From positions 14,976,407 through 15,040,406 of the forward strand of contig JAVLUZ010000142.1 in the NCBI GenBank assembly GCA_036768485.1: 64,000 nucleotides of DNA, read 5' to 3'. The notes under the pieces are model-generated. The model was not told the DNA's origin, searched no databases, and saw nothing but the letters and a program-made list of their open reading frames with translations. The position numbers and the translations under genes are program-made. This document shows, piece after piece, positions 1 through 44,476 of this stretch; the stretch's first letter is position 1, and each line of letters starts with the position of its first letter. The DNA is from Mermis nigrescens. Its lineage: Eukaryota > Nematoda > Enoplea > Mermithida > Mermithidae.

Positions 1-840
1 TATTTTCGCAAAAACGCACTCCGAAATGCTTTACAATCTCGAGCAAGTACTTAGCCCGATTACATCGAGCAGGCTTAAAATTACGCATCCAAAAGCTGCA
101 GATTTTCCCAATCACACGTAAACACTAGTGACACGTTATTTCGCGCTACATGGCATTTCTTGCCGTGATCCCGAAAAAAATCGCTTTGCAATAACACGCA
201 TATCGACACCTCTGAACGCACAAAGCAGGTCGCAGTCTTTCTTAGGACTTCCGTCATATTATCGTCGATTCTGTTCCAAATTGCGCGCCAATTTCATTTC
301 CGCTACACTCAACTTTTGGCAAGAACCAAAAATTTTCATGGGGCAAACAGCAGCAGGGCGCATTCGACATATTAAAATTTCTCGCTTGCTAAAACGCACT
401 CAGTTCTACAGTATCCAGATTTCGCCAAACCTTTCATACTTCAGGCCGATGCGTCTACAGAGTCGAGCGTTGGCGCAGTTGCAGCGCAGATAGGTGTTCC
501 TGATAATCACGAGCATCCTATTGCATTCGCAAGTAGAGAAGCTTAGCAAGCCAGCGGAACTTAATTACGGCATCACAGGACTCGAAAGGCACTCGCTGTG
601 TGCATGCCTTCGGTGAACGTATACGCCCATATTTGTTTCAACAGTCAATCACAGTATATACAGATCATACGTCCGTTAAATCAGTTTTGCATAAAGAGAA
701 TCCGTCAGGCAGAATAGCTCGGTGGGGTCTAGCAACGACAGCATTACAATCTAGACAGCCAACCTCGTAAAGGATCGAAAAATCAAAAACGCAGATGCTT
801 TATCTCAGCTGTCCTATGAGAAAATCAGGCACAAAACGCA
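1..840 (+). pseudogene. Ty3/gypsy pol remnant: reverse transcriptase C-terminus and RNase H
   Basis: Decayed retrotransposon coding sequence readable only by switching frames. Near 2-110 the translation resembles the end of a Ty3/gypsy RT (NLEQVLS, then RAGLKLR). At about 245-290 the RT/RNase H connection motif FLGLPSYYRRF is clear. From about 440 the RNase H motif LQADASTESSVGAVAAQ appears, then TDH near 660 and NADALSQL near 790, the usual RNase H end signature. Frameshifts and stops separate these blocks, so no functional polyprotein is encoded. The 5' part (gag, protease, RT palm) lies before the window. The domain order matches the integrase remnant that follows, so both belong to one element. 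Confidence 0.85.
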
Positions 841-1229
841 GACATCGAGGATTTAAACACACATCCACGCATCACGAGTAGCTTTTTTTTCGGTTTAGAA
901 GAAGAGGCTACTGACACCGAAGAATATATTAAAGACATCAAGGATACATCAAATGTCATGACAAACGTAAACGCATGACGGCATAGAACAATTTGACAAG
1001 CGATCCTACAAGCTAATGCGCACAGTCTTTACACCTTAATTGATGGCATTCTACACCGTAAATTTAATAGCAAGAACAAGTTGTATGTCACTGCATGCAC
1101 TTCAACCATCAATAACTGCCAAGCAAATCATTAGGCGGCAAAATAAATTCGCAGGTCCGCTGCTGGAGGCTCGTAAGACATTCAAACTCATAAATCGCCG
1201 ATAACTTTTTGGCCTACCATGGGGCATTG

Positions 1230-2009
1230 ACAGTGCGAATTATTGTAAAACATGTTTTGACTGCCAAATGAGCTAAGCCTGCATATCGTAATGTTCAAGC
1301 TGAGCTTGTTCCTATACATGCAACAGGTCCTTTCTCACAGAGTAGGTCTGGATTGTATTGGTCCGCTACCTATCACGGAAAAAGGCAATCGTTTCTTTAT
1401 CACTTACTGTCAGATTAGCCTAGTAAATATGTTGAAGCTGTCGCCAGTAGAAGACATCACAGCATACGCCGCATGCCAAAGTTTTCGTTACACATATCGT
1501 TTTGCAAACACGGCGCACCAGCAAATAATCTCATTGCGACAGGGGGACAAATTTCAGCATCTATTCTGTTCACAGAAACTACTCGCTTATGCAATACACT
1601 GTAAAGTACATGCGCACCCCTATCATCCGATTTCTAACGTGAGCCATTGAACGCACTAATCAAACGCTGATCTGCAACTACGCATTCGTTTTTATGTCGA
1701 TACTTGGCAAAAAGACTGGGACGAGTACTTGCCGTCCGCAATTTTTTGCACAAACGCTACATATACGCGATTACTGCATCAGGTTTGTCTTGCCATTTGA
1801 ACTTATTTATGGCCGGGAACCACTCTTGCCACTACGATTCTCAGTTTATCAACTTACGCCAACCCCATCTCTGGATCTTGGCGATTATGCAAATGTCGAC
1901 ATCAAACAGCTTTTCACGCTTGCATACGCTAAACCAAGCTGCAAATATTACTACACGCCCAAAACAAGTATTCTGCACAATATAATCGAAAAGCACACGT
2001 CGTCCAAAC
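1230..2009 (+). pseudogene. Ty3/gypsy pol remnant: integrase zinc-binding end and catalytic core
   Basis: Near 1250-1270 the translation gives C-x-x-C (CFDCQ), the end of the HHCC zinc finger. From about 1330 a core-like stretch runs LDCIGPLPITEKGNRFF and then KLSPVEDITAYAA, which matches the first catalytic-Asp strand and following helix of gypsy integrases. Near 1790-1830 LPFELIYGREPLLPL is the characteristic end of the catalytic core. By 1960-2009 the frame resembles the basic linker that precedes the GPY/F module (QYNRKAH). Coding similarity stops at 2009, where the inverted-repeat terminus of a 9.66-kb insert begins. The missing C-terminal module reappears at 11671. Several stops and shifts make it a pseudogene. 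Confidence 0.85.
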
Positions 2010-2029
2010 CAAAACTGTTAAATCCAAAA
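2010..2029 (+). repeat. Left terminal inverted repeat of the 9.66-kb element
   Basis: A 20-bp sequence identical to the reverse complement of 11651-11670. It coincides exactly with the loss of integrase coding similarity on its left. Confidence 0.75.
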
Positions 2030-2696
2030 GAAAATTTTTGGTGCAAAAGTGGGCACAAAAACCGGCTTTTTGATGTTTTCATGAGCAAGAGTATGAATTT
2101 CATGCCTATTTCTTAAGCAAAGCCGCTTTTTCCCTAGTGAAGAAAAACATGCGGGCCATAGCAAGTCTGAAAAATGCTTCATTTTTTTCAAATAATCTGA
2201 ATTTGACCGTATTCCTCCTTCCAGATGCACAAAAAGTGCATTCATTGTGTGCAATACCGCATTTTCTTTAAGTTTAAGTTTCAGGATAAATAAAACACAA
2301 CAATATACCTTCATTTTGCGTATTTCAGGTAGAACCACAGCATTTATGAAAAAATCATAGTAATTTATGCTAAAATCACAAGTATTCATAAAGAGGGAAG
2401 GAAATTTACAAAAAATGACCGATTTTTCAAATGCGCGACGTAGGCATACTACTTTATGCGATTAGTGGTGCACTTTTCTATTCATTTGTGTAAGTGCATT
2501 AAAAATACACTTCAAAATATAAAAATAAGACAAGCGATACATTCAATGGGGAAATATCATCAATTATTATGAATAAGTCTTTGTTAGACTCCTTTTTTCA
2601 AATGGAACCTTCGAATTTCGCAAAATTGTTCTCTTCATCAACCAGTCGCCTGTGAGTAAAAGATATGCAATAAGAAATACTATACGAACTCCGATT

Positions 2697-3685
2697 AACA
2701 AAAATAATGCAAATTTTTCGTTAAACTCATTAAGTTTACAACTGAAGAAATTTCTTTAGTTGGCCGATCAGATTTACAATAATATTGCAGATTTTTCGTC
2801 AAATGCACAAAATTTTCAACTGAAGAAATTTCTTCAGTTGGCCGACCGGATTAACAAAAATATAGCAAATTTTTCGTCAAATGAGCCTAATTTTCAACTG
2901 AAGAAATTTCTTCAGTTGGCCGACCGGATTAACAATAATATAGCAAATTTTTCGTCAAATGAGCCTAATTTCTAACTAAAGAAATTTCTTCAGTTGGCCG
3001 ACCGAATTAACAAAAATATAGCAAATTTTTCGTCAAATGAGCCTAATTTCCAACTGAAGAAATTTCTTCAGTTGGCCGACCGGATTAACAAAAATATAGC
3101 AAATTTTTCGTCAAATGAGCTTAATTTCCAACTGAAGAAATTTCTTCAGTTGGCCGACCGGATTAACAAAAATATAGCAAATTTTTCGTCAAATGAGCCT
3201 AATTTCCAACTGAAGAAATTTCTTCAGTTGGCCGACCGGATTAACAAAAATATAGCAAATTTTTCGTCAAATGAGCCTAATTTCCAACTGAAGAAATTTC
3301 TTCAGTTGGCCGACCGATTAACAAAATATAGCAAATTTTTCGTCAAATGAGCCTAATTTCTAACTAAGAAATTTCTTCAGTTGGCCGACCGATTAACAAA
3401 ATATAGCAAATTTTTCGTCAAATGAGCCTAATTTCCAACTGAAGAAATTTCTTCAGTTGGCCGACCAGATTAACAAAAATATAGCAAACTTTTCGTCAAA
3501 TGAGCCTAATTTCCAACTGAAGAAATTTCTTCAGTTGGCCGACCGAATTAACAAAAAATATAACAAATTTTTCGTCAAATGAGCCTAATTTCAAACTTAA
3601 GAAATTTCTTCAGTTGGCCGACCGGATTAACAAAATATAGCAAATTTTTCGTCAAATGCACCAAATTTTCAACTGAAGGAACTTT
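2697..3685 (+). repeat. Left array of 78-bp palindromic tandem repeat (about 13 units)
   Basis: Thirteen copies of a 78-bp unit, each with a 22-bp perfect palindrome built from two AACTGAAGAAA half-sites, then TTGGCCGACCGGATTAAC and AATTTTTCGTCAAATGAGCC. Palindromes begin near 2740, 2818, 2896, 2974, 3052, 3130, 3208, 3286 and onward at about 78-bp spacing. End units are more divergent and central ones nearly identical, which fits homogenisation by unequal exchange. Because 78 is a multiple of three, the array reads as an open 26-residue repeat, but there is no start context or domain, so I do not call a protein. The same unit recurs reversed at 10497-11090. Confidence 0.95.
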
Positions 3686-3782
3686 TTCACTTGACAGATA
3701 AGCAAGAACATAAAAAATTTTTATTATATGTTCTTCAAAACATCTTTTTCCTCCGTGGTGCAACCATATAGCTATTGGAAGC

Positions 3783-4367
3783 CAGTGGCGGATCTGGAAT
3801 TTTCGTTAGGGGAAGTGCCCCAACTTTCTCTAATCCAGTCTAAAATAGACCTAAAAATTTGCCCTTCATGCGCGAAGAAGTGTTTTTTGAGATTTTATGT
3901 TGTCTCATTTTATTTAAAATTGCTTTTGGCGCAATAACTGTTCCAAGAAATTTTGAGATTTTCATCAATTTTTTTGCGAAAAAAATCAATTATTTTTTGA
4001 CTTGAGGAAAATTCGGCGGATAGCACCCGAAAATTTCTGAATTATAGGTTGAATGAACTTTTAAAGTTGGTATTAGTTGATTTTTTGTATTTGAAGGAAG
4101 TGATATGGAGTGTCGAAAGTTTTAAAAGTTATATGCTCTTGATATTGTTTTAAAACTTGCAAAAGTAAGGTTTATAGATTGCCGCCAAGAAAGTAAATAA
4201 ATGTCAATAATAGTAATTATCCAGCGCAAAGCGCTGAAAAAATTTGAGAAATAATGACCAGTGATAGCCCAAAATCATTGCAAATTACATATCCATCGTT
4301 TATGTCGCCAAATATTTCGAGTCATTGGATAGATGCGGCTGCTCCGGCCCCCTTAAATCCGCCCATG
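3783..4367 (+). mobile_element. hAT-like MITE, CAGTGGCGGAT family, copy 1
   Basis: Begins CAGTGGCGGATCTGG and ends with the inverted counterpart TTAAATCCGCCCATG. It is flanked by near-perfect 8-bp duplications TTGGAAGC (3775-3782) and TTGGAAGG (4368-4375). No coding capacity. It contains the hairpin CAGCGCAAAGCGCTG at 4222-4236. An 8-bp duplication with CAG...CTG ends is typical of hAT transposons. It lies inside the 9.66-kb element and is therefore younger than that insertion. Confidence 0.8.
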
Positions 4368-4375
4368 TTGGAAGG

Positions 4376-7300
4376 TACATATAACTAAATATGTACAGAC
4401 GATAATTTATTTTTTCTGCATTATTACTGAGCCTGGCGTTCAATATTTCTGATTTTATTTTATATTCGCACCTTTGAGAAATAATTTGTATCAAAAGGAT
4501 GGAAAGAGACTGCCTAATTTTTTTGAAAGCTTCATAAATCATAGTCTATTGCCGGAGCGTGCACTGAATTTTTTTAAAGAAAACGGACTAGGAATGGATG
4601 ACTCCATATTTTGGCGCATTCGGAGGTACGCAAAATAAGGGTTGTTAATTGTTTTAATGACGTTAATTGCTGGATAATGAAGCATTCTTCTTGAAGCTTT
4701 GGTGGAATACTTTTCACAGTGAAAGAATGTTTCGATTTTTCCCGTGAAAGCGAAAAATTAAAAATAACGTTAATTTCCTTTTTTGACCTCAATATTAATG
4801 CCAGTGGATTTTAAACTGCACTCTTAGCTTTATCACAAAATTCTCTACCTGAATATGTGAAGAATACAAAATTTTATGAAGAATGTTATGCTGAAAAGTA
4901 CATTTAAAAATTAACAATATTTAAATAACGTTAAGGTTTAACAACGCTACACAAAATGCATTTTTTGACATTTCAACCATGCTCTACCCATTAAAACCAA
5001 AAAAAATTTTATCGAAAAAATTTCAGACCTTCTCTTCGCATCACATTTTTAGCTTTAAACAGATTCTATAGCATTTTACGTGTTATTTTGTGGCGGATGC
5101 ATTTCCATAATCTTTTCTGCATTATCCTATGTTTCCGAAAATTTTTGGATCGAAAGGGGTGGTCACTGGTCAGCAAATGGGAGTAGCTGCCAAATCCTAG
5201 GTCTGGGTGGTCTTAAATTGGCAAAAAATCTCAAAAAACATGCCAAAAATTTAATTCTGGGCCGTCTATCAATTTGTGGGGTCAAACAGGTTCTCGCAGG
5301 GTGGTTTTAACCATACACCAATATGTGATGGTCAGCCCTCTTCCCTGACCCACTGTGTACACTGGTGGTTTCTCGATAGCAACAACAAATTCTGTGTGAA
5401 AATTTCTTCTTATATTCATAAGTATGTACCTGGCTTACAAATTGCCGTCGTATCAATTGGCACATGAGAAAATCTGATCACTGTCCACACAAGCTTCTAA
5501 GACGCCGATATTCGTAAGTAAATAGAAAAATCATTCGCTTAGGATAGAATCTAGTCACTGATGAATTGCAGCTTAATATTCCCGGTTGAATGGATATAAA
5601 AATTTGAAATTGAAATGCGTAAATGACAATACCATTAGCTTCAGCCACAAATGTCGGCTAAATAGTTCTCTGATCAATGAAAATAAGTTGAAAGCCACAT
5701 GTTTGATAGCAAAACTTAAGTGTGAGGTCTTTTCTTATAATAGATGTAGACTTGCCCATAACCAATGGAGGCCGAGGGTAGCTTGAACCCCGCCCCTGCC
5801 CAAATGAAAAGAAATTAAGTTTTCACTGGGGTCCACCAAAGTCAAATAAAATGACTACCAAGCAAATTTCTAGTGAACTTTTGAGCCAGTCAATTCAGAA
5901 TTTTCAGGCGCTTCGTGCCAGATGTCTTATTTTTTCTATATACTTCTCATCCACAAAGCCTAACATAGACATATTAAATATGGAGCAATTTTAAGTTATA
6001 TTTTTCATGTTATCAATTTCTATGTTCAAAAATAACGATAATGAACCACAAATTTTAAAAAAATTTTAAAGATCCCTAAAAGCGAGTTCTAAACGTCCCA
6101 AATTAATCCTTGTCTGATTGAAAAACATTCTGAGCTTGCACTGGACATTGTAATTCAGTCTTGCAAACAATTTAAACAATACCTTTTATATCCAAAATAA
6201 TTAAAGAATTTTTGATTTGTCGAAAATTTCTCTTCGCCGTTGCACAGAGCTCGTCTAGAAACGCTTTGAAATACCGTTATTTTCAAATGGCTCCTTATGG
6301 TTCCAGAGATATTCGACTTTAACAATTTTGAGCCCTCCCCCCGAAATAAAATTCTGGTCACGGCGCTGCCTGTAGCCATAATTTTGAGCACGACTTTTAC
6401 AAATTTTCACTGACAATTAGAAGCGAAGTGGATAAACTCAAGGTGATCACAGAAAGCTGTAAGGTAATTTACACCAGCTAAAAAATACATAAAAACATTT
6501 TGAGTTTCAGCTTAAGCATCAGACTGTCGGATCCAGAAATGTTGTATGAGAAGAGAACCCAATGTCTTTTCAAACAGTCAAAAATACTTTTAAAAATTTT
6601 ATATTTATATGCAAAACCGACAGTGCAAAGCGCGAAAATTAATAAAATCTAAGCAAAAAGCATAGAGATTTGAATTAATTCACAATTTGCTGTTGGAGCA
6701 CTTAGAGCAAAGCTTGTTCAAGCAATTTTGCTGAAAATGAAAAAACTACAAAAATACGGCTATAATTCAGGCTGCGAAGAAAGGAAATCAATATAATTAA
6801 TTAGTATATGGCGCAGTTTTGGAAAAATTTGGAAATTTGGACGGCTAGTGACCAGAAATCACTGCAAAGTATGTGCATATGGATTCTTCTCACCAACAAT
6901 GCTGGGCCCATAGGGCCACTGTCATCCTTACCCCCAGAAATATGCCTCTGACGGATCATAAGTGAAGACTTAAAAACTCATTTTGTCGATCTAATTAAAA
7001 GAAACATCATTTAAAAGTATTTAATTTGTTGTGCAATCACTTTTTCTTAAAACATACTAAGTTAGGGTGAAGAAAAATAAGGCAGGAGCCTGGATATAAA
7101 AATTCAGACGCGCCGGACGATAAAGCAAGACAAGTTGAGAATGAACATTTACAGCACATACCTACATATAATGTTCCACAGAAACAGATCTTATGTACGC
7201 ATTTCCCGTGCCAAAAGCAAAACAAGTACCGCCAAAAACCGCCACAGAACTGAAAAAATAAAGTAGGTACTTACGTACCATTGTTTACAGAGTGGGAGAA

Positions 7301-8515
7301 ATGAGCCGAATGCTGGAATATAAAGGGAGCAACAGACAGGCATGAATTTGCAATAAGCCAGTAATATGCAACGGTCAACCAATTAATCGGATACTGTAGT
7401 AATTTATGGCCGCCTATTTTCCTATGACCAATCAAAGATGATTTGAGCTAATGTAAATTCATCTGGTCTGTACATGGTCATTTCGTATTGTGCATAAAAC
7501 ACGCCAACAGATTAGTCCACACGATTTGACCTTTGTTTCTAATATACACTCGTCTACTTATATTTGGTCAGCAGCCCTGTTATAAAAACAGGATATGCAT
7601 TCTTTAGTTGGTGGTCGAATGTGACCATCTTTTTTAGGGCTCTATTATCCCAAGAGGCAACAAAAACCGCATTTACGGTCGCCTTCATGCAGAGAGTCTC
7701 TAGAATGCGTAGGTAAACTAAGTCAGTGCGCATGCCTTTCTTTTTGAAAGTAAGCAGTTTTGTTAAACATAAGTGTATTTATGAAGTCGTTATTATTTTA
7801 TTATTATTTTATCTCCATATTTTCTCTAAAATTTTTTTTCTTCCTTTTTGTCATATTTTTGACTCCCTGTTATCTCAGTGAATCATTGTAATTCAAAAAA
7901 GTTCTCCTCAGCATTTTTCAAATCAAAATAAAATCAAACCTGCTTTTCTCAATAATTATCGATATCTCATGAAAGGATACAATGAAATAGCTTATGTTAT
8001 AGTAATGAGGTTGATTTGTAGAACAGTTTACTATATAGAGGTTTTCATATTTCGATCCGAGCATTCTTACCCTTTGTTTTAATTAATCGTGTTCACTGAT
8101 TATTTTGTAATCTTTGTAGGTCTGAATTATGCTTAGCGGATAATTCAGACTTTTAAATTTATTGTTATTCAACTCGCTTATTACGCCTATTGCTAATTTA
8201 GGATAAAGAACAAAAAATATTTACGGAAAATAACCTTGGCGCTTGAAATTGACAAGCTATTTAACAAACTTAATGCTTGGAAATAGCACGGTGATTTAAC
8301 TTGCTTGCCGATTTGACAGATTTTGTTATTCATCAAGATTTGACCGTATGATATCATATGCCAACGTACGGTAATAAGAAGCCTGATGATATCAAATTCG
8401 TAAATACGAGCCATTTGCAAATGGCAAATGGAGCGGATATAGCTTGTTTCAAATACAAGGTGAGACAACAAATGTAATTAAAAACCGAATAAGCTCTAAT
8501 TTATGGCTGGATTAA
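4376..8515. other. Interior of the 9.66-kb element, no recognisable gene
   Basis: About 4 kb of AT-rich DNA with only short open frames. None shows a transposase, helicase or polymerase motif I recognise. Around 5870-6400 is a decayed relative of the MITE at 3783 (GGCGCTTCGTGCC hairpin at about 5908). The rest is unassigned. Confidence 0.5.
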
Positions 8516-9395
8516 CAGGTATAGGCAGATTTATGAGGAACGGGGCGGCCGCCCACATTGGCTCAAAATAATTGACAAAATAAAACATGAATATATAATT
8601 TGCAATTTTTGGCCGCCAGCGAAATTTTTCCGGCGCTTTGCGCCGAATAATACCTATTAATAATACTTATTTTTTTCTTAGCGGCCCAGAGGTTATGATT
8701 TTGCTCAGGGAATAAGTTTTAAAACGATCTCAAGTGCAGAAACAACTTTCTCGGAGCATATTTTTCTTCTGCATATTTTCATGCATAACTTTTAAAAATT
8801 TTCAACGTTCCACATTAAATGCTACAAACGCAGGAGACAGAGCAGTAATTTGAGCTTCTAAAGGTTCTTGCGCTTTAATTTTGCGAAGTTTCCGGCGCGT
8901 CGCATCAGATTTTCGCTAAACTCAAAGAAATTGGATGATTTTTCCGAGCAGATTGTCGAAAATTTAATGTGATTTGCAATGATTTTGGCCGTCAGTGATC
9001 GTAATTTCTTAAATTTTTTCCGGCGTTTCTCGCCGGATAATACCTTTTAATGACATTTATTTACATTTTCGGCGGCCTGGAAGCCACTTATTTTGCTCAT
9101 AGAATTGGTTTCAAAACAATTTCAAGGTCACATCTATTTCAGCATAGATTTCGTCTATTTTCAAGCATAACTTTTAAAAATTTACGACGTTATACATCAA
9201 ATGCGACAAAGATAAGATCGAGCAGTAAATTAAGCTTATAAACATTCTTCCGCATAAATTTCACAACTTTTCCGGCGCTTCGTGTCGAATTTTCGCTAAA
9301 ATCAAAAATTATTTTTGACTGTTTTTGGAAAAGATAGAAAAGTTGGGGTACCGACCGCCCCCTCCTCCTTTAGCAAAATTCTAAATCCGCCACTG
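8516..9395 (-). mobile_element. hAT-like MITE, CAGTGGCGGAT family, copy 2 (internally duplicated)
   Basis: In reverse orientation it runs from CAGGTATAGGCAGATTTATG to CTAAATCCGCCACTG, with imperfect 8-bp flanks TGGATTAA and CTGATTAA. The interior holds two successive versions of the same sequence (about 8570-8950 and 8960-9350), each with a GC-rich hairpin near 8630 and 9021 followed by AATACCT. The sequence is homologous to 3783-4367 and 43238-43869 on the other strand. Confidence 0.7.
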
Positions 9396-9808
9396 CTGAT
9401 TAACAGTATGTTTACCAAGTACTTTTGAGTAAGTCTTATACTTTTTAAGCAACAATTTTAATGTTGAGATTATTTTATTATCTCTTAGTTGTGAATATCG
9501 CAAATACTTTAGTGACTAAAAAATTAAAGATTTTTTCCTTTTTAATAGCTCAAAAGTTTCCTAAAAGCCTGTTTTGGCGAACTTTCAGATGTACTTCTAG
9601 AATTATTCATTTTTTTCTTATAAAACCCTCGTGAGAAAAAAATTGTTTCACTTTCGGGGATGGAAAGACCTCCCTCCCTCCACATGGATAGAGTCAGCTT
9701 ACACATTACATAACATGAGCATTTCATCATTCCCTTATTCAGATAATTGACGTACAATATGCGCAAGTAGGACTTCAAATAAAGAGTGAATCCAGTGGGG
9801 GTCCGGCG

Positions 9809-10319
9809 CATATCTGGGAGTGGGGAGTTTGGGGGTATGATGCACCCCAGAAACCAAAATACCCTCCCTCTGAATTCAATTTTTGAATTTTTTTAATTTT
9901 TTTCGTAAATTTTTGATGCCAATGGATAGTGCTCGATGAGAACCGTTAAAAATGGTGTCTTTTCGCCATACCACCACACATGGGCGTGGGGGCTTTGGGG
10001 GTATGCACCCCCAGAAGTTGAAATACCCCCCCCCCAGAAATCAAAATACCCCCCCCAGAATTCAAATTTTTAATTTTTTTTGCTTTTTTAGCGATTTTTT
10101 GATGCCATTGGAGAGTGCTTGATGAGAAACGTCGAAAAATGGTGTTTTTTGCCATACGACCACTTTTAGGGCCATTCTTTGACCTTTGAAAATTTATTCA
10201 CCCTGCCCCCAGAATTTAGGTGCTGCCCACCTATGTATACCACCATTTTTAAGGCCATTTTTTGACAATTAAAAAATGTTGCACTCCCCCCAGAACTCTG
10301 GTGCTGCTGCCCACCTATG
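9809..10319 (+). mobile_element. CAYACSTGGGC-family MITE (outer copy, interrupted)
   Basis: Starts CATATCTGGGAGTGGGG and ends CTGCCCACCTATG, with flanks GTCCGGCG (9801-9808) and GTCCGGGG (10320-10327). It is split by a second copy of the same family at 9975-10235. Non-coding. Shares GATGCCAATGGATAG and the GCAAGATTTT/AAAATCTTGCACC segments with the other copies. Confidence 0.8.
9975..10235 (+). mobile_element. CAYACSTGGGC-family MITE nested in a sister copy
   Basis: Begins CACACATGGGCGTGGGGG and ends CTGCCCACCTATG. It is flanked by CATACCAC (9967-9974) and TATACCAC (10236-10243), a 7/8 duplication of a site within the outer element. Confidence 0.8.
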
Positions 10320-10496
10320 GTCCGGGGGCATTGATGCACAAAATGGCCGATCTGTAGGGATCAGCCGGCCTGGGAGGAGGAGTCAAAAATCGAATTTTTT
10401 TGGCCGAAAAGACCTCAAAAACGAAAATAAGTGCAAAAATAGCGATAAAGAAAATTTGGTGCAATTGATGAAAAATTCGCTGTATTTTTGGTTTAA

Positions 10497-11090
10497 TTCG
10501 CCAAGTGAAGAAATTTCTTCAGTTGGAAATTTGATGTATTTGACGAAAAATTCGTTACATTTTTGTTAATCTGATTGGCCAACTGAAGAAATTTCTTCAG
10601 TTGTAAATTTGGTGCAATTCACGAAAAACTTGCTGTATTTTTGCTTAATCTAATTGGCCAACTGAAGAAATTTCTTCAGTTGGAAATTTGATGTATTTGA
10701 CGAAAAATTCGTTACATTTTTGTTAATCTGATTGGCCAACTGAAGAAATTTCTTCAGTTGGAAATTTGGTGCAATTGACGAAAAACTTGCTGTATTTTTG
10801 GTTAATCTAATTGGCCAACTGAAGAAATTTCTTCAGTTGGAAATTTGATGTATTTGACGAAAAATTCGTTACATTTTTGTTAATCTGATTGGCCAACTGA
10901 AGAAATTTCTTTAGTTGGAAATTTGCTGCATTTGACGAAAAATTCGTTACATTTTTGTTAATCTGATTGGGCAACTGAAGAAATTTCTTCAGTTGGAAAT
11001 TTGATGCAATTGACGAAAAACTTGCTGTATTTTTGGTTAATCTAATCGGCCCACTGAAGAATTTTCTTCAGTTTAAAATTCGGTGTAATG
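10497..11090 (-). repeat. Right array of the 78-bp palindromic repeat, inverted (about 8 units)
   Basis: Eight copies of the unit found at 2697-3685, on the opposite strand, with palindromes near 10505, 10581, 10660, 10738, 10817, 10895, 10973 and 11051. Spacing is 77-79 bp. The units are more diverged than the left array, and two alternating subtypes can be seen (GATGTATTTGACG versus GGTGCAATTGACG). The array lies at the distal end of the 9.66-kb element, mirroring the left array. Confidence 0.93.
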
Positions 11091-11650
11091 AAAACAGTAA
11101 AAAATCAATCTGTGTATTATTTAATGCGATCAATTGTATGCAAATGATTCATTTTTCAGTTGAACAAACCAGCAGCTGAAGAAAGAAGTATGGCATCAAA
11201 TGATACTGCGTTTTTCCTTGGTTTAATGGAGATTGTTGTTGACTGCTGTCGCGGGTCTATACTTTTTGTGATCTGATTAAACTTGTTTTATAGCTTGTAA
11301 AAATGGTTTTTGCTGCACACCTGAAGTAAGCTGCATAAAAAAACAACGATTTTCGCAGAAGTGGTACAGGGAGCACTATAATCGTAAAAATTGGATACAA
11401 TTTTGCGTGTACCAAATGAATAATACAAAAAGTAATAAATTTGGTCTGTATTTGCTGCTAATGGGAATCAAGCAAAAAACTTTGACCTGAGGTAAGGAAA
11501 TATCTTTGTTTTTATGCATTTCCTAAAATACTTCGGCTCAGAAGAGCCAAACTTGAAAAATTTGGAGAAAAAATTGAAAAACTTATTCTTCTCAAGTATG
11601 AAGGAAGAAAAATCAAATTTTTTGCTAGATTATATGAAGTTTCGAATTCA

Positions 11651-11670
11651 TTTTGGATTTAACAGTTTTG
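11651..11670 (-). repeat. Right terminal inverted repeat of the 9.66-kb element
   Basis: Exact reverse complement of 2010-2029. Integrase C-terminal coding similarity (YNIGDLVL) resumes at the next base. Confidence 0.75.
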
Positions 11671-11868
11671 TACAATATTGGAGATCTTGTACTTCAAGTT
11701 TCACACACTGTTTTGCAAGGGCAAACACAAAAATTAGCAAACAAGCACAAAGGGCCTTTCAAAATTGTTAAAATCATGCATCCAAACGTTGAAATCGAAA
11801 ATTTACAGACACATAATACACACATTGTACATGTCAACGACACTTTGCCGTATTTTACTCGAAATTAA
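11671..11868 (+). pseudogene. Ty3/gypsy integrase C-terminal GPY/F module
   Basis: Open frame of about 66 codons beginning YNIGDLVLQV and containing KHKGPFKIVKI, the GPY/F signature of Ty3/gypsy integrases, then VHVNDTLPYF before a stop. In an intact element this follows the linker seen at 1960-2009, so this is the other half of the integrase interrupted by the 9.66-kb insert. It is the best-preserved part of the element, with no internal stop, but it lacks its upstream domains. Confidence 0.85.
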
Positions 11869-13440: not shown

Positions 13441-13447
13441 TTGACAA

Positions 13448-13577
13448 TGCCAATGGATAGTGCTTGATGAGAAACGTCGAAAAATGGTGTTTTTATCGCC
13501 ATACCACCATTTTTAAGGCCATTTTTCGACCTTCAAAAATCTTGCACCCCCCAGAATTTTCTTGCTGCCCACGTATG
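13448..13577 (+). mobile_element. CAYACSTGGGC-family MITE, 3' fragment
   Basis: Matches the last half of the family from GCCAATGGATAGTGCTTGATG to CTGCCCACGTATG. The 5' half is absent. Confidence 0.75.
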
Positions 13578-13959
13578 GTTGTCACCCAGAAGAATCCAGT
13601 AGACCCCCGTAAAATCGATACATTACCCCAGAATTAAATTTTGGCATGTTTTTTTGATTTTTGCGAGTCTTTTACCACCCAGACCCCAGAATTCGGTCGC
13701 TGTGACCATGAACATACATGCATAGCAACCAAATTTTGGACGAGGAGGGGATTCGATGGAGAAAAATCGCATAAAAATAGCACCAAAAATTCAGTTCTGG
13801 GTCTTTCAGATTTTCTGGTGTCCGAAATCCCACGCCCATGAGCGCTGTGGTGACTGACAAATCATGATTATGTATTTAATTATCAGAGTGTATCTATCGA
13901 AAATTCTCAACGACACTGCTTGTTAAAAATAGAATTTATGCTCAGATTGACTTACTATA

Positions 13960-14372: not shown

Positions 14373-14871
14373 TACAGTTTTGATTAGTTTCTGTATCAAA
14401 TATAAATACTAATCTTTTCGAAATTAAAATGCTGAAGGGGAGGTCCATGAAGCAGTCCCATAATCAAGGAATAACTCTAAAATTACATTAGCAAGAAATC
14501 TAAATACATGCAATGTATAGGCAGTAACATTTAGATACATAGGAGTAGTAACGTACGATGCGGTTGATTTAGAACTTTACCACACGCTTGGAAATGGTCA
14601 CTGGAACGACATTTTCCGATATTCACCTGAGCACATTTACCATTGTGTACGACGAGTATGTAGTATGCCAACTAATTTTAGCGAGAAGTGTAATTATTCA
14701 CGATCATTTATTTTTATGTCCCATGCCAATTTAATTGAGGATCTATTGGTACAGTCAATTCCATTAAGCTGGTTAAGTTGGTTATACTCGAAAAAGCGTA
14801 ATGAAGTGTAGTTTTAGAGATTCTATTCAGACACGTAGGCATTGTTGTTATAAGATAAATTGCATTGTATG

Positions 14872-15116
14872 CATACGTGGGCAGCAAGAAAATTATGCGG
14901 GGGTGCAAGATTTTTCAAAGGTCAAAAAATGGCGTTAAAAATGGTGGCATTGCGTAAAAAACACAATTTTCCGACGTTTCTCATCAAGCGCTATCCATTG
15001 GCATCAAAAAATTGCGAAAAAAACGAAAAATTTTCAAAAATTGAATTCTGGGGGGTATTTTGGTTTCTCGGAGGGGGTGCATACCCCCTAACCCCAACCC
15101 CCAATGCGCAGGTGTA
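14872..15116 (-). mobile_element. CAYACSTGGGC-family MITE with perfect 8-bp TSD
   Basis: CATACGTGGGCAGCAAG at one end, GCGCAGGTGTA at the other. Flanked by identical ATTGTATG at 14864-14871 and 15117-15124. Confidence 0.88.
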
Positions 15117-15752: not shown

Positions 15753-16258
15753 CACATCTGGGCGTGGGGGGTTTGGGGGGTATGCACCATACGTGGGCAG
15801 CAAGAAAATTCTGGGGGGATGGTGCAAGATTTTTTTGAAGGTCGAAAAATGGCCTTAAAAATGGTTGTATGGCGATAAAAACACCATTTTTCGACGTTTC
15901 CTCATCAAGCACTATCCATTGGCATCAAAAAATTGCGAAAAAAACGAAAAAATTTCAAAAATTGAATTCTGGGGGTATTTTGATTTCTGGGGTGGGGTAT
16001 TTTGGTTTCTGGGGGGTGGGGCGTGCGCCCCCACGCCCAGAGTGTGGTATGCACCCCTAGAAACCAAAATACCCCCCCCAGAATTCAATTTTTGAAATTT
16101 TTTTTCGTTTTTTTCGCAATTTTTTGATGCCAATGGATAGTGCTTGATGAGAAACGTCAAAAAATTGTGTTTTTATCGCCATACCACCATTTTTAAGGCC
16201 ATTTTTTGACCTTCAAAAAAATCTTGCACCCCCAGAATTTTCTTGCTGCCCACGTATG
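15753..16258 (+). mobile_element. CAYACSTGGGC-family MITE (outer copy, interrupted)
   Basis: Starts CACATCTGGGCGTGGGG and ends CTGCCCACGTATG, with flanks TATACCAC and TATGCCAC. It is interrupted after its first 35 bases by an opposite-strand sister copy. Confidence 0.85.
15788..16046 (-). mobile_element. CAYACSTGGGC-family MITE nested in a sister copy
   Basis: Flanked by perfect 8-bp GTATGCAC (15780-15787 and 16047-16054), a duplicated site of the outer element. Opposite orientation to its host. Confidence 0.9.
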
Positions 16259-16665
16259 TATGCCACTGCATGCAAATGTGTTAGTGTGTATACTATGCAG
16301 AAAAGGAACAATAGGCTTATCTTCAAATAATGCATTAAACATATAAACAAATTTAATGCCGAATCACGCACAATAAAGCATATACATAAATAGAAAAACT
16401 AGATAAGAACAGCCACAGAAGAAAAGCTAGAATCGAAATACCGGATGATGTGTTAAACGACGGCGTTAAATCAGAAACGGGATAAAATATTCAGAGCCGA
16501 AATTACGGATAAAGAAACAGAGCGCCCACGCAAACAATCGAGGGGAGAGGTCGGCCGTTCTTTTATTTTTTACTCGAAAAATTTAGAAAGTTGCAATTTT
16601 ACACCTAATAAAATTGATAAAACGTTCATACTTTCGTACAAAAACTTCATTCAAGGAGTCGGTAG

Positions 16666-16919
16666 CATAGGTGGGCAGCACCAAAATTCTGGGGGGGTGA
16701 AAAAATTTTCAAAGGTCAAAAATGGTCTTAAAAGTGGTCGTCGTATGGCGAAAAAGACATCATTTTTCGACGTTTCTCATCGAGCACTATCCAATGGCAT
16801 CAAAAAATCGCTAAAAAAGCAAATAAATTCAAAATTTGAATTCTGAGAGGTATTTTGATTTCTGGGGGGTATTTCAAATTCTGGGGGTGCATAATCCCCA
16901 ACCCCCAGGCCCATGTGTG
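16666..16919 (-). mobile_element. CAYACSTGGGC-family MITE with perfect 8-bp TSD
   Basis: CATAGGTGGGCAGCACC to CCCATGTGTG, flanked by GTCGGTAG at 16658-16665 and 16920-16927. Confidence 0.88.
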
Positions 16920-16929
16920 GTCGGTAGAC

Positions 16930-20520: not shown

Positions 20521-20594
20521 GGCCTCTTAGCTCGGTTGGTTAGAGCGTGGTGCTAATAACGCCAAGGTCGACAGTTCGATCCTGTCAGGGGCCA
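20521..20594 (+). tRNA. trnI-AAU: tRNA-Ile (anticodon AAT)
   Basis: Full cloverleaf. The acceptor GGCCTCT pairs with AGGGGCC (one G-T wobble), with discriminator A at 20594. D-arm GCTC/GAGC; anticodon stem TGGTG/CGCCA around loop CTAATAA with anticodon AAT at 20555-20557; variable loop AGGTC; T-arm GACAG-TTCGATC-CTGTC with five perfect pairs. No intron and no encoded CCA. Internal A box (TAGCTCGGTTGG) and B box (GTTCGATCC) are intact, and a T5 Pol III terminator follows at once. In eukaryotes this tRNA, after A34-to-inosine editing, reads AUU, AUC and AUA. It looks functional. Confidence 0.96.
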
Positions 20595-29278: not shown

Positions 29279-31552
29279 CTTTGATAAATAAGTAGATGAA
29301 AAATTAAGAACACAAATGTACATATACCTATTCGATTGATTTTTCGCCACACACCGTACTTGTCAAGTGCCAACCAAATGTGTTCTTGGGCGGAGGGGGT
29401 TTGACCTCCAGTATTACTGCAGATTCCGCTAAATAGCTGCGACCATACCTAGGTAGCAGCCAAATTCTGGGGATCCGATGTTGCCAAGTTGCCAAGAACA
29501 GCGTCAAAAGTTGAAATCGGGTCTATCGAATTTGGTAAGCGGTCCGCCGGATTATCAGACTTCTCGAGGGAAGAGATCAGACTCCGATAGATCCCTCATG
29601 CCCATGCTGACTGTGATAAGCTCACTCCATAACTGTCGATTTTTCGTAAAAATCGTATAAAGTGCCTTTTTTGAGCGTTTTTAGCTCATTTTTGGCTCGA
29701 AAGCTTTGAATTTTCGACTTTCGAGCTATATATTTTTTTCGGCAATATTTTTTTGCTCAATTTACTCAATTTTTTCTAATCTATTCGAGATTTTTCTACG
29801 CTTTTCTGTCTTAGCCAGTGTTTTTTGTACAAGGTCCGTTTGTACACGTTCAAAGATGGTCCCCAAAAGTCTTTGTACAGTTTGTACATGCAAATTTTGG
29901 TGTACTATAATATAGTACAGTAGCGATTATAGTAGTGGTAAGAGAGGGTTTTCGATCATTTGTAGTGTATTTTAGCTAAATTTTGGGTTTCTGACGCCAA
30001 AAATTACTAAAAATTGTCTGAGAACGGCGCGAGGCGCCGAAAATTTTGACATTTTTCTATTCTAATTGCAAATTCTGCTATTTTAAAGATATGTATGACA
30101 AACAAACTTCATTTCGGCGCGAAGCGCCTAAAATTTTTGGGAATTTGACACGTTTTACAGTTTTTGTCTTTCCAAAAATCTTTGTACATTCTATACACAC
30201 AAATTTTTGGGTACTATAATATGGTACAGTAGCAATTTTAGTGCGGTAAAAACAGAGTTGTTCGACTTTTGGTAGTGTATTTGAACTGATTTCTGGGTCT
30301 CTAAAGGCAAAAATCACTAAGAATCGTCTTAAAACGGCGCGAAGCGCCGAAAAATTTGACACTTTTCCTTTTGAATGCAATTTCTGCCTTTATAAAGATA
30401 TATATAACACAGAATTACTCATTTCGGCGCGAAGCGCCGAAAATTTTCTTTGAATTTAGGACCTGTTTTGCAATTTTTGTCTTCCCAACAATCTTTGTAC
30501 ATGTACAAAGACGGTCCCGAAAAGTCTTTGTCATCCGGAAAAATCTTTGCCGAATACAAAAAAAACAGTGGTTTTAGCAGAAAGATTATTGTTTAAAACA
30601 TCAACAAAGCGGTGTTTTCGATGTGAACCTTTCGTTTTTTCGCCGAAAAATCATACTTTGAAAATTTTTTTGGCCGACCCCTCTCACTGATTGCCCATGC
30701 TGTACATGTATGCTGTCAGCTACCCAAAATTTTGGCCGGATATTTAGACATCGAGTCGGGAGCGGAAGCGGATTTCTCGTTTTCAAAAAATACATAGCCT
30801 AAAGTGCCTGATTTCCGATTGTGCAAAAATGTACCTCATTGTTTACCAATCTCCCAATAATGCACATAAGGTTATCTATTTTTATCGAAACTCATTTCAT
30901 TTATCCTGCGAATCAATCCGAAGATTTTTGCTCGACTATTTATAGCGTTATTTTTCCTACAATTTTTCTGCTTCAAGCAGAATCATCACGAAAACTTTGG
31001 AAATATAATAGCATCGCTGAGTCAGCTGTAAAATAGATCTAAATTGTTCGAATTTATTGATAGGTAGTGGGCTAGGAAAAAAGCATGGAGCAAAACGTAG
31101 TTCTCCGATAATTGTTAGCAAAAGTGCGTATGATTTCGAACATTCTTTCCAATAGAAGTCCATTTACATTCAAAATTCTTAAAAGCTCAAAAATAAATAA
31201 ATAAACGCATTAATCTATTAATTAGCATTTGGAGCGAAGCATTTCTGTTTCTGGAAAAGATTCATTCTTTAATCAGTTTTTTCAAAAGCGTGTAGGTCCT
31301 ATTTAAAAAGCAGAAAATCGCAAATTTTCAGTAATTTTGTGCAAGTTTTTTTGTACAGTATCTGACAAATTTGCTGAGTCCATAATCGCTAAAAAAGTTG
31401 CAAAAAAGGTCAAGATTTCTATTCCGGGAGGGGTCTGCGAGGGTTATTTTAAGTATGAGGTCTAAAACCCAAGTTTATGTATGGCTGTAATGTAATCACA
31501 GGGCCGAGCTGGAGGAATCAGTATTTACTGCCATATTCATAAAGAAACTGAC
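29279..31552 (-). other. Receptor gene A intron 2, with 310-bp tandem repeat
   Basis: Between donor GTCAGT at 31552 and acceptor AG at 29279-29280. It contains a roughly 310-bp tandem repeat at 29840-30540. The part near the exon (31390-31500) is homologous to the matching intron in gene B (46990-47110). Confidence 0.7.
29840..30540. repeat. 310-bp tandem repeat carrying GCGAAGC hairpins
   Basis: A bit over two units. CGGCGCGARGCGCCG recurs at 30025 and 30335, and at 30115 and 30425, each 310 bp apart. TACTATAATAT-GTACAGTAG recurs likewise near 29905 and 30215. Non-coding. Confidence 0.85.
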
Positions 31553-31918
31553 CGTTACGCTGGGGTCTCTGTAAACGAATCCAACGATTGTAATCAGTAG
31601 GCCGTGGCTCCAGATAAATGCGATAGCAAGCCGCAGATATAAGCTTGATAAGTTTTTGTAGAAATAGGGCCGAAAAATTGATAAAAATCTATCGAAGCCG
31701 ATCAAAAGGATGGCCGAGTGACTGGCATTTATGGATGCAATAATCGTGATATTTCGAAAAAAGCACGTGTCTTGGCGCGAGGCCAGCATAGACTTGTCCA
31801 ACCAAGTTCCCAAGAAAGCTCGAACACTGTATTCGGTAAAGTTGAGCGAAACGATCAAATTGCTTAGACCAAGATTAGCTACGAGGGCTCCGAACTTATG
31901 GTTTCGTTGAGCTGGTAT
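31553..31918 (-). CDS. 7TM receptor gene A, exon with TM2-TM4 (366 bp)
   Basis: Second coding exon, 122 codons, open throughout, phase 0 at both ends (acceptor TTTCTTTACAG, donor GTCAGT). It starts in intracellular loop 1 (AQRNHKFGALVANLGLSNL, TM2) and has CFF at the start of TM3 as the disulfide cysteine. TM3 ends GFDRFLSIF in the position of the class A DRY motif. TM4 follows with its Trp (AFIWSHGLLI), ending in loop 2 (DPSVT). Counting by eye, 101 of 122 residues match gene B exon 47152-47517, and the exon length is identical. DRF instead of DRY is shared by both paralogues. Probably a chemosensory or peptide receptor in the plasma membrane; the ligand is unknown. Confidence 0.92.
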
Positions 31919-32528
31919 CTGTAAAGAAAGCACAGCTAGTGGGTAAGAAACTTTGCATAATCGCGTCGCGTGTTGGCACGCAAGTGCGCTTAATAAAAAT
32001 CGTCGTATCGATTGATTTGTACAGTATAAATTAATATAAGTATAAAAAATAAAAAATTTTATCATAAAATAAAGTAATTTAATTATTATTCAGCATAACA
32101 AACATAATAACCAATCAAAAAGCTCGAGGGAAGACAAAATGGGTGGGCAGGCACGCAGCTGTTGGGATAGGGGGAACTAGTCCCCCCCACAAAATGTTGA
32201 CACACAATTATTTATCTTTCCATATTGCTTTCCTCTGTAATGTACCAGAATTGAATACAAAACTAGTTAAACAACTTTTTAGCCGTGTCGAGCCTGGGTA
32301 TAATGTTGAGGAATCATTTTGTGTGATTATTTTACACGACATACTTTTTGAAGACAATTAGGAACAAAATAATTTTTTTGGATTTTTTAAAATTTTTTCT
32401 TCTCCGATAATTAGAGCTTGCTGAGAAACGCTCATCTACAAATATTTGTTGAGATAACTGACTTCAAAATTGCAATCCCCCATAGTGCTTGATAACGAAG
32501 TGATCGAATGATCATGGGGACTGCACAT

Positions 32529-32778
32529 CATAGGGGGCGGCACCAAAATTCTGGGGTGTTATAAGTCTTTTCAAAGGTCAAAAAATGGCCTAAAAAATTG
32601 TGGTAAGGGCGAAAAAAACACAATTTTTCAACGTTTCTCATCGAGCACTACTCATTAACATCAAAAAATAGCGGGAAAAAAATAGAAAAAAATTAAAAAA
32701 TTGAATTCTGGAGAAGGGGTATTTTGGTCTCTCGGGGGGGTGCATACCCTCCAAACCACTCCCTCACGCCGAGGTGTG
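32529..32778 (-). mobile_element. CAYACSTGGGC-family MITE in intron
   Basis: CATAGGGGGCGGCACC to CCGAGGTGTG, with only weak flanking similarity CTGCACAT / CTGCATAC. An older copy. Confidence 0.75.
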
Positions 32779-33497
32779 CTGCATACCTATGCAGACCCAA
32801 AAATAACTTTTTTTGATCTTTTCTCCGCCGCTATATTTGAGTTGCCAGATCCCCTCCTAAGAATTTGAATGCTGCTCAAGTAAAACCAACATAGCGAGAT
32901 GAAGCCGCATTTACATTTTTTAAAACATTTTCTGCTATCGTTTTGCATGAATTTTCCAATATTTGTGACGGTTTTGGTAAGACGAAAAGTATTGTTATTT
33001 GAGGAGCCTAATTTATCGCTCGGTAAGCTAAGCAATATTTAGTTAAATATTTCGCGTGCATTTATGCATATAATATTCGTTTTTTGTGCCTTTTCTCATT
33101 TTCTTCTGAAATATTCCTATTCCACACCATATTTTTCCGATGCGTTCGTTCTTATACTTTATAAGTTGGCTATGTCATCGCGTACACGATTGTTAAAAGC
33201 TTATTTGAGCCTGTTTAATATTACTATTCAATGATTCATTTTATAGGACATTATTGAATTTAGACATCTGGCTTAAAACTTTATCAATATAACTCAGTTT
33301 CGGAATTCATCAATTTACAAAAATATGTAATATTATTTCCTTTCATAAAATATGTTATAATAAAATACAGAAATTGCTTAATGAAAAAGTGAATGAGAAG
33401 TTGACTTATAAAAATTATGATAGTTTTCTCGCTATTACTGTTACTTTGTAAGCCATAAGCTAAAAACTAGGATTTGCTGACTCCAACAGCTGATAGG

Positions 33498-33764
33498 CAT
33501 ACGTGGGCAGCAAGAAAATTCAGGAGGGGTGCAAGATTTTTTGAAGGTCAAAAAATGGCCCTAAAAATGGTGGTATGGTGAAGAAATCACCATATTTTCG
33601 ACGCTTCTCATCAAGCACTATCCATCGGCACCGAAAAATTGCGCAAAAAAACAACAACAAAATTTCAAAAATTGAATACTGAGGGGATATTTTGATTTCT
33701 GGGAGAGGAGGGTGTTTTGGTTTCTCGGGGGGTTGCATACCCCCAACCCCCACGCCCAGGTGTG
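33498..33764 (-). mobile_element. CAYACSTGGGC-family MITE in intron
   Basis: CATACGTGGGCAGCAAG to GCCCAGGTGTG, flanks CTGATAGG / GTGATATG (6 of 8). Confidence 0.8.
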
Positions 33765-34241
33765 GTGATATGTGACTGCACTGAAACAAACAGAAGGCCA
33801 AGAATTAATGGTAATTACGATTCAAATGCAAAATAGTTATCTGTCAACTTATTGTAAGTAAAAGTTTTCAAAGGTCATGTTCAGTCTAATGCAAAATATT
33901 CTAGTAAACATCGAGAAATCTCCCGTTTCGGATGGCTTTGAAAAGGGATTTATGAGAAATTTTTCTTTTGATGTCAATGGTTCTATATAGAAGAATGGCG
34001 GGAAAGTCGGAAAACTGAGATGAAAGGGTTCTTTTGATGCCAAATGGATCTATAGAAAAGAGTGACAAGAAAGTCAGAAAACTGAGGAAAAAAATAGAAA
34101 AATTAAAAAATAAAATATTCAAAAAACTAGAAGTCGTTTCAGCGATGGTTTTCATTTTAATCCTGAGCTAATTCGCTTTTAAAACTATCTAGTTATCTTT
34201 ATTATCTTATCTGATTATGCAGCCCACAAATCTGAGCTTAC

Positions 34242-35294: not shown

Positions 35295-35534
35295 CATACG
35301 TGGGCAACAAGAAACTTCTAGGGAGGCCTTAAAAAATGGCATGGCGAAAAACACCAGTTTTCGACGTTTCTCATCGAGCACTATCCATCGGCATAAAAAA
35401 TTGCGAAAAAAAAACAAAAAATAATTTTGAAAAATTGAATTCTAGGGGGTATTTTGAGTTCTGCGCGGGGGGTATTTTGGTTTCTTGAGGGTGCATACCA
35501 CCCCCATCCCAAACCCCCCCCACGCCCAGGTGTG
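35295..35534 (-). mobile_element. CAYACSTGGGC-family MITE with perfect 8-bp TSD
   Basis: CATACGTGGGCAACAAG to GCCCAGGTGTG, flanked by GCTGACCC at 35287-35294 and 35535-35542. About 860 bp upstream of gene A exon 1. Confidence 0.9.
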
Positions 35535-35639
35535 GCTGACCCTCTCCCGCGTACGAATGGCATTTAGGAAGAAAAAGGTGACTTGATATATACTAGGCCG
35601 AGAAGTTAGTTTCGAAATTGCTTTTTAAAAATTAACTCA

Positions 35640-37390: not shown

Positions 37391-37563
37391 CTAAAGTTGC
37401 AATACTTGTTAAAAATCACACTTTCTGTAGTCAACGCAGAAAATTGAAGTATGTATATTCTGCGGCCTCTAAAAAATATGATTTTCTTCAAATAATTTTC
37501 AATGCTTCACATTCACATATGAGTTGGTGCATGAAATCGCGCAATAAGGAAATGTCTTATTAC

Positions 37564-37850
37564 TACACGTGGGCATGGGGGGCTTGGGCGTATGCACCTC
37601 CCCAGGAGTTGGAATACCCCCCAGAAATCAAAATACCCACCAGAATTCAATTTTTGGAATTTTTTGCTTTTCTAGCGATTTTTAGATGCCATCGGATAGT
37701 GCTCGATGAGAAACGTCGAAAAATGGTGTTTTTCGCCATGCGACCACTTTTAAGACCATTTTTGACCCTTGAAAATTATTTCATCCCCCACCCCTATCTC
37801 CAGAAATTTTGTCACCCCACCCCCCAGAATTTCGGTGCTGCCCACCTATG
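37564..37850 (+). mobile_element. CAYACSTGGGC-family MITE
   Basis: TACACGTGGGCATGGGG to CTGCCCACCTATG, flanked by CTTATTAC (37556-37563) and CTTATTCC (37851-37858), 7 of 8. Confidence 0.83.
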
Positions 37851-38405: not shown

Positions 38406-38455
38406 TATAGTATACACAATCGCTGCAGACATTTAAGCGTACCTGCATACATGTT

Positions 38456-43869: not shown

Positions 43870-44476
43870 TATTAGGGGACAATTTTTCTAATCGGTCTTA
43901 ATCACGCTACGGAAAAGTCTGCTGCTGTAGAATACATATATGGAAACCACTTTAGCCACTTATTGCGTTTGTGCTAATGAAAAATGATTTCCATGTACAG
44001 GGTTTCGTAAAATTGAACTATTTTTTAATAAAACGAAATTAGATATTCTGCAAAATGTTGTTGTGTAATGCACTTGATATTTTTCAGTTTACTATTTATT
44101 TTTCCGAATATTCCTCATGTTTTACTCATACGAATGCATTATGCGACAAAGCCTGAATTGCGTGAACGACAATTTAATCGTGAATTTATAATTTCCTGCA
44201 CACTCTGTTTTCGCCGATATCATATTATCACATATTCAATTTTCTCGCTACTTTTTCATGTAAAAAAAGGTTTTAAATCAAATGTGTGGGGCGCTCTGTA
44301 TGGTCAGTCAGGGGAAATTACGATTAGATACCTGGGAAGCAAACGAAATCTATCGATGTCAGGATGGGAAAAATCTATAAAAAAAGTCGCAAAAAAACAT
44401 GGTAAAAATTCAATTATGAGGTTTTGCGCTCTATTTAATTTACGTTGATATCTTGGACTTTCGATAGGGTCTAAAC

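What the first reader, a model, noticed from the sequence alone, without database searches (positions are those of the whole stretch)
2010..11670. A 9.66-kb element with a perfect 20-bp terminal inverted repeat splits a gypsy integrase
The two ends are exact reverse complements. Integrase sequence stops at 2009 in the linker and resumes at 11671 in the GPY/F module. Inverted arrays of one 78-bp unit sit inside both ends. The result has foldback architecture at a very large scale, with no recognisable transposase. It could be a non-autonomous giant, or it could encode an unfamiliar mobilisation protein.
Basis: partly seen in the sequence, partly recalled or inferred. Interest (0 to 1): 0.88.

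Follow-up and report, generated by a model that had tools for sequence, protein, structure and literature searches.

The report
Transposase-less transposon with inverted palindrome arrays
In a repeat-rich genome, apparently a worm's, an old retrotransposon has been split by a second piece of mobile DNA that has matching ends and mirror-image arrays of small palindromes but no recognisable gene to move itself, so it probably relied on an enzyme made elsewhere.

Summary
A perfect 20-bp terminal inverted repeat brackets 9,661 bp exactly where a decayed gypsy integrase breaks. Stretches of the same genome (182 kb) held three gypsy relatives, all running uninterrupted through this site with the same spacing, so the interval is an insertion and its empty site can be read. 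No codon is lost and only 2 bases (AC) are extra. That fits a 3-bp target duplication (TAC) that lost one base and leaves no room for an intact 8-9 bp one, as in Foldback/Mutator or hAT. Inverted arrays of a 78-bp unit with a 26-bp palindrome (21 sites) lie inside both ends, but the outer arms are not homologous, so it is no canonical foldback. No Pfam match reaches its cut-off in six frames. About 2.0 kb is nested MITEs, so 'giant' is overstated. Best reading: one copy of an undescribed non-autonomous DNA transposon moved in trans, its arrays probably transposase-binding sites. Whether the termini recur genome-wide, the decisive test, is open: the genome search did not complete in 26 tries.

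The parts
1..2009 (+). Decayed gypsy pol, RNase H to integrase linker; coding ends with CAA (Q) at 2007, then 2 extra bases AC
   Evidence: Pfam RT_RNaseH_2 / RT_RNaseH; tblastn pieces match gypsy relatives L006, L011, L015
2008..2009 (.). Two extra bases (AC) between the last gypsy codon and the TIR; possible remnant of a TAC target duplication
   Evidence: Comparison with three uninterrupted relatives
2010..2029 (+). Left terminal inverted repeat, 20 bp
   Evidence: Exact match
2030..2690 (.). Left outer arm, not homologous to the right outer arm
   Evidence: Alignment score 26 against shuffle mean 24.0, maximum 35
2693..3693 (+). Left array: 12.9 copies of a 78-bp unit, 13 sites of a 26-bp palindrome
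   Evidence: TRF; palindrome scan; unit alignment
3783..4367 (+). Nested hAT-like MITE (CAGTGGCGGAT end), 8-bp duplication TTGGAAGC / TTGGAAGG (7 of 8 equal)
   Evidence: Related copy at 43238; flanks printed
4368..8509 (.). Non-coding core of unknown origin, with short diverged matches (about 5200-5283) to dispersed repeats
   Evidence: No Pfam match here; longest ORF reached by 65 of 100 shuffles; repeat matches
8519..9397 (-). Second nested hAT-like MITE, opposite orientation, with an internal tandem duplication; GATTAACAG on both sides (2 bases between the right end motif and the duplicate)
   Evidence: Matches to the 43238 copy and to itself; flanks printed, positions
9803..10322 (.). Nested copy of a dispersed repeat family abundant in the window and in the sampled genome
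   Evidence: Self-comparison; hits in 8 of the 19 sampled genome stretches
10452..11080 (-). Right array: 8 units, inverted relative to the left, two unit types mostly alternating (157-bp higher-order repeat)
   Evidence: TRF; unit alignment
11081..11650 (.). Right outer arm, not homologous to the left outer arm; one weak 40-bp match in sampled stretch L011
   Evidence: Alignment test; blastn E 5.8e-04
11651..11670 (-). Right terminal inverted repeat, 20 bp
   Evidence: Exact match
11671..11868 (+). Gypsy integrase C-terminal SH3 (GPY/F-type) module to the stop codon, 65 codons, open
   Evidence: PF24626 E 6e-05, below cut-off; tblastn to L006 and L015

Best explanation
A single DNA transposon with short terminal inverted repeats, lacking a transposase gene, inserted into a gypsy copy that is now decayed. 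SHOWN: exact ends, uninterrupted gypsy relatives, inverted palindrome arrays, no detectable coding domain, nested MITEs. INFERRED: it was cut and pasted by a transposase supplied in trans, acting at the 20-bp ends; the palindromes in the inverted arrays served as multiple dimer-binding sites that bring the two ends together; it made a short (about 3-bp) target duplication, TAC, whose left copy has lost its T. The arrays then lengthened and homogenised separately in each arm, and MITEs accumulated in the interior.
For: Exact 20-bp TIR at the two break points. The three relatives found are uninterrupted; from the Y position (R in L011) to GD there are 12 residues in each, and 12 in the window when its left and right pieces are read end to end. 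Net gain besides the element is 2 nt. Arrays: within-left identity 93%, within-right 88%, between arms 83%; palindrome columns 93% identical between arms against 77% for the spacer, so this is hardly a mirrored assembly error. Folding of three units as single-stranded DNA, z -8.3, as palindromes would give. No Pfam match at its cut-off in six frames. Repeated internal sites bound by a transposase are documented for Galileo (PMC3688188, passages read); that paper does not call them palindromic.
Against: Only one copy is known; neither TIR nor 78-bp unit was found in 182 kb of the genome, nor a second TIR in the window. No exact TSD of any length from 2 to 11. The palindrome block ranks only 4th of 83 circular 26-column blocks for between-arm conservation, and within the left array palindrome and spacer are equally conserved. 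No transposase candidate was found. TIR and unit share no significant motif.
Confidence: 0.68

Rival explanations
1. A Foldback/Mutator-type or Galileo/P-type element whose 8-9 bp target duplication was lost, by deletion or by recombination between two copies.
For: Inverted arrays of tandem units and no transposase resemble Tetris (PMC4079207, passages) and Tm1 of root-knot nematodes (PMC3169594, abstract and passages); some Tm1 copies also lack TSDs.
Against: The gypsy reading frame shows no missing codon and only 2 extra bases, so a deletion would have to remove one copy of the duplication almost exactly. Outer arms are not inverted repeats, unlike the outer TIR domain of Tetris.
Confidence: 0.15
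2. A non-autonomous Helentron (HINE): rolling-circle element with subterminal inverted repeats, satellite-like repeats and no TSD.
For: No exact TSD; HINEs often carry tandem repeats between modules with inverted repeats, and Helitrons make no TSD (PMC7492417, passages).
Against: Here the inverted repeats are at the very ends, 20 bp and identical, and there are two arrays in opposite orientation rather than one central array. Two extra bases remain at the site.
Confidence: 0.05
3. Two separate smaller elements, or a rearrangement between two copies, that happen to frame unrelated DNA; the 9.66 kb never moved as one unit.
For: No exact TSD, outer arms non-homologous, arrays of different subtype in the two arms.
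Against: Two independent insertions would hardly give identical inverted termini exactly at one integrase codon junction with no codon lost.
Confidence: 0.08
4. An autonomous element of an unfamiliar kind, moved by its own short protein.
For: A 147-codon ORF on the minus strand (2018-2461): none of 100 shuffles of the left arm has one as long (longest 135).
Against: 7 of 100 shuffles of the whole element without most of the left array reach it; no Pfam match at E 10; AlphaFold2 single-sequence pLDDT 36.5. That ORF ends inside the TIR.
Confidence: 0.04

Closest known systems
Tetris (Drosophila virilis foldback element, PMC4079207; passages)
   Same: Outer domain, tandem-repeat domain in inverted orientation, non-coding middle, no transposase found
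   Different: Tetris has an outer domain of up to 866 bp within its inverted repeats and 8-10 bp TSDs; here only 20 bp plus the arrays are inverted and the site gained 2 bases
Tm1 (Mutator/Foldback family of Meloidogyne, PMC3169594; abstract and passages)
   Same: Nematode, non-autonomous members, inverted arrays of tandem motifs near both ends
   Different: 13-15 bp motif, commonest TSD 9 bp, asymmetric 7-bp outer motifs; none of these seen here
Galileo (P superfamily, PMC3688188; passages)
   Same: Internal tandem repeats carrying secondary transposase-binding sites; functional analogy for the arrays
   Different: Long TIRs, P-type transposase; no such domain here. A longer TSD is recalled, not read
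CACTA/EnSpm elements (recalled only; literature searches searches failed)
   Same: Short TIR, 2-3 bp TSD, repeated subterminal transposase-binding motifs, large non-autonomous copies
   Different: Ends here read CAAAACTG, not CACTA or CACTG; arrays are of longer units; no transposase seen

Membership tests
Foldback / Mutator (Tm1-like) | 8-10 bp target site duplication | tested here: not met
   No exact TSD of 2-11 bp; net gain 2 nt against uninterrupted relatives
Foldback / Mutator (Tm1-like) | Long inverted repeats built of tandem subrepeats | tested here: inconclusive
   Arrays inverted but outer arms not
Foldback / Mutator (Tm1-like) | Mutator-type transposase in some copies | not testable with these tools
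Galileo / P superfamily | THAP/P-type transposase | tested here: not met
   No such Pfam match in this copy; a non-autonomous copy could lack it
Galileo / P superfamily | 7-8 bp TSD (recalled) | tested here: not met
Helentron (HINE) | Subterminal inverted repeats, one central tandem array, 3' palindrome, no TSD | tested here: not met
   Terminal 20-bp repeats and two opposed arrays; the 3' palindrome was not tested; absence of an exact TSD is shared
CACTA / EnSpm | Terminal CACTA/CACTG motif (recalled) | tested here: not met
   Ends begin CAAAACTG
CACTA / EnSpm | 2-3 bp TSD (recalled) | tested here: inconclusive
   2 extra bases compatible with TAC minus T
Transposon insertion with TIR (general) | Precise interruption of an otherwise continuous sequence | tested here: met
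   3 of 3 gypsy relatives found in 182 kb are uninterrupted at the site; L011 is cut by the end of its stretch just after the site
Transposon insertion with TIR (general) | Same ends at other loci | tested here: inconclusive
   No other copy in the window or in 182 kb of the genome; genome-wide search did not complete

The most novel reading that the evidence does not exclude
A transposon lineage not yet described that combines a short perfect TIR, non-homologous outer arms, inverted arrays of palindromic units and a 2-3 bp target duplication: foldback-like synapsis reached by a superfamily with a short duplication, by convergence with Foldback, Tetris and Galileo.
Probability: 0.2. Interest if true: 0.55.

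Novelty: new variant of a known kind. Interest (0 to 1): 0.4.

Why it matters
Foldback-like repeated ends are known in the Mutator and P superfamilies, with long target duplications (the length for P is recalled). If a short-duplication transposon evolved inverted palindrome arrays independently, it would suggest that multiple binding sites near the ends are a general solution for moving large non-autonomous elements. It also gives a nematode locus where array growth can be dated against nested MITEs.

Tried and rejected
Idea that the TIR and the 78-bp unit share a motif (as in Tetris): not significant (at best 388 of 2000 shuffles reach the score). Idea that the outer arms are a diverged inverted repeat: score 26 against shuffle mean 24.0, maximum 35. 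Idea that 3783-9396 is one nested 5.6-kb element: rejected, because each end has its own MITE with its own duplication. A scan for further nested TIR-plus-TSD elements inside gave one low-complexity pair, within the control counts of 0-5 in five shuffles; it also missed the two hAT-like MITEs, so it is not sensitive. Protein searches with the gypsy pieces found nothing at the thresholds set (13, 258 and 87 candidates). PDB searches with two integrase pieces found nothing at E 10. The left end and array have no match in the plasmid collection. The TIR hit in one viral contig has no GAAATTTC palindrome core in the fetched stretch and looks like chance. The palindrome core has no hit in viral contigs and three in bacterial MAGs, taken as chance; those were not followed up beyond a motif count. 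In the 182 kb, the right outer arm has one weak 40-bp match (L011, E 5.8e-04), and the MITEs and core have short matches in several stretches. Literature: no paper holds the palindrome letters searched. The other searches were seen as listings of titles and abstract beginnings (20 of 23, 20 of 53, 11 of 11, 20 of 21 and 20 of 23 papers); I saw no element of this make-up there. Searches failed. PMC6431247 (passages) was looked at and not used.
Full report
WHAT WAS CHECKED. The two 20-bp termini at 2010-2029 and 11651-11670 are exact reverse complements and the only exact copies in the window. Inverted exact matches of 20 bp or more turn up in 20 of 20,000 random pairs of 100-bp segments; the window's other exact 20-bp inverted matches look like arrays and dispersed repeats, though not each was traced. 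The chance of one falling on both sides of a broken gene is small.

GYPSY FLANKS. The left flank carries gypsy RNase H in two frames; the right flank opens with the integrase C-terminal SH3 module (E 6e-05, 23.5 bits against a cut-off of 30). The integrase core was not found by Pfam, but pieces of the left flank hit three gypsy relatives by tblastn (best E 3e-15, weakest listed 0.009). The left half is decayed, with matching blocks spread over all three frames. The right 65 codons are open.

EMPTY SITE. The whole-genome search did not complete, but stretches of the window's own assembly (G000) could be read: 19 stretches, 182 kb, of which 5,451 bases are N. The window's abundant dispersed repeat is in 8 of the 19, as expected of the same genome. 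By tblastn they hold three gypsy relatives, in L006, L011 and L015. All three are uninterrupted at the site; L011 is cut by the end of its stretch just after it, and the right gypsy piece hits L006 and L015 only. From the Y position (R in L011; aligned by eye) to the GD of the SH3 module there are 12 residues in all three; the window gives 12 as well if its left piece (ending VVQ) and right piece (starting YNIGD) are read end to end. So no codon is missing, and only AC (2008-2009) is extra. The right flank starts TAC. A 3-bp duplication TAC whose left copy lost its T is the simplest account; 2 bases of filler is the alternative. An intact 8-9 bp duplication would have added 8-9 bases.

ANATOMY. 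Left array: 12.9 copies of 78 bp, 13 palindrome sites. Right array: 8 sites (up to 8 substitutions allowed, 6 in the worst). Twelve left and eight right units were aligned; the thirteenth left site, the most degenerate, has no unit after it and was left out. Mean identity is 93% within the left array, 88% within the right, which mostly alternates two unit types, and 83% between them. The 26-bp palindrome is 93% conserved between arms against 77% for the spacer; the palindrome block ranks 4th of 83 circular blocks. Within the left array there is no difference (92.5% against 92.8%); within the right there is (92.4% against 83.5%). The edge units of the left array (2738, 3592) have endings closer to the right-arm type than its inner units do (by eye, unit listing), as expected if the interior expanded and homogenised. 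The outer arms share nothing beyond the ends. Three units fold as single-stranded DNA at z -8.3.

INTERIOR. Six-frame Pfam scans found no match above its cut-off. The three weak ones (DUF4404, E 9.7e-05, 23.4 bits against 27; Exo70_N, E 0.64; CAP_N, E 0.19) all fall in the translated arrays. The core has no ORF beyond shuffle expectation. The left-arm ORF (147 codons) exceeds all 100 local shuffles but is reached by 7 of 100 for the whole element without most of the left array, has no Pfam match and no confident fold. Two hAT-like MITEs lie nested: 3783-4367 with TTGGAAGC/TTGGAAGG, and 8519-9397 with GATTAACAG on both sides. The label hAT rests on the CAGTGGCGG end and the 8-9 bp duplication (recalled criteria). 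A third nested repeat lies at about 9803-10322. Together these are about 2.0 kb, leaving about 7.7 kb.

HOST. Three ORFs match Srsx chemoreceptors (that Srsx is a nematode family is recalled). The species is not known; the mermithid Mermis nigrescens, with 84% repeats (PMC10989877, passages), is one guess and was not tested.

COMPARISON. Tetris and Tm1 share inverted tandem arrays and non-autonomous copies, but have 8-10 bp duplications. Galileo shows that a transposase can bind repeats inside long ends. HINEs lack TSDs but have a different layout. CACTA elements fit on TSD length and subterminal repeats but not on terminal letters (all recalled). The element works like a foldback or subterminal-repeat transposon; it is not filed as a member of any of these families.

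LIMITS. There is one copy only. The absence from 182 kb plus the rest of the window says only that the element is not very abundant. The short TSD rests on one site and one inferred base loss.

Noticed in passing
9803-10322, 13447-13588, 14867-15112, 15767-16266, 16664-16926, 32516-32781, 33490-33772, 35325-35535, 37556-37793, 42297-42517, 44501-44716, 47791-48061, 49612-49828, 50953-51211, 55473-55742, 63530-63801: One dispersed repeat family with many copies in the window (one place, 15788-16258, is an inverted pair) and hits to the copy at 9803-10322 in 8 of 19 sampled genome stretches.
   Followed up: partly
31384-31971 and 46982-47570: Two related Srsx chemoreceptor gene segments, 79% identical over 600 alignment columns.
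   Followed up: no
2018-2461 minus strand: 147-codon ORF covering most of the left outer arm and ending in the TIR; longer than in all 100 local shuffles but no family or fold.
   Followed up: partly
43238-43900: A further copy of the CAGTGGCGGAT hAT-like MITE family.
   Followed up: partly
38408-40361, 51657-53916, 59165-62749: Large repeated blocks in three places, for example 87% identical over 946 columns.
   Followed up: no
10452-11089: The right array mostly alternates two 78/79-bp unit types, giving a 157-bp higher-order repeat; the left array does not.
   Followed up: yes
20521-20594: A tRNA-Ile (AAT) gene by ARAGORN; Rfam also gives a tRNA there.
   Followed up: no
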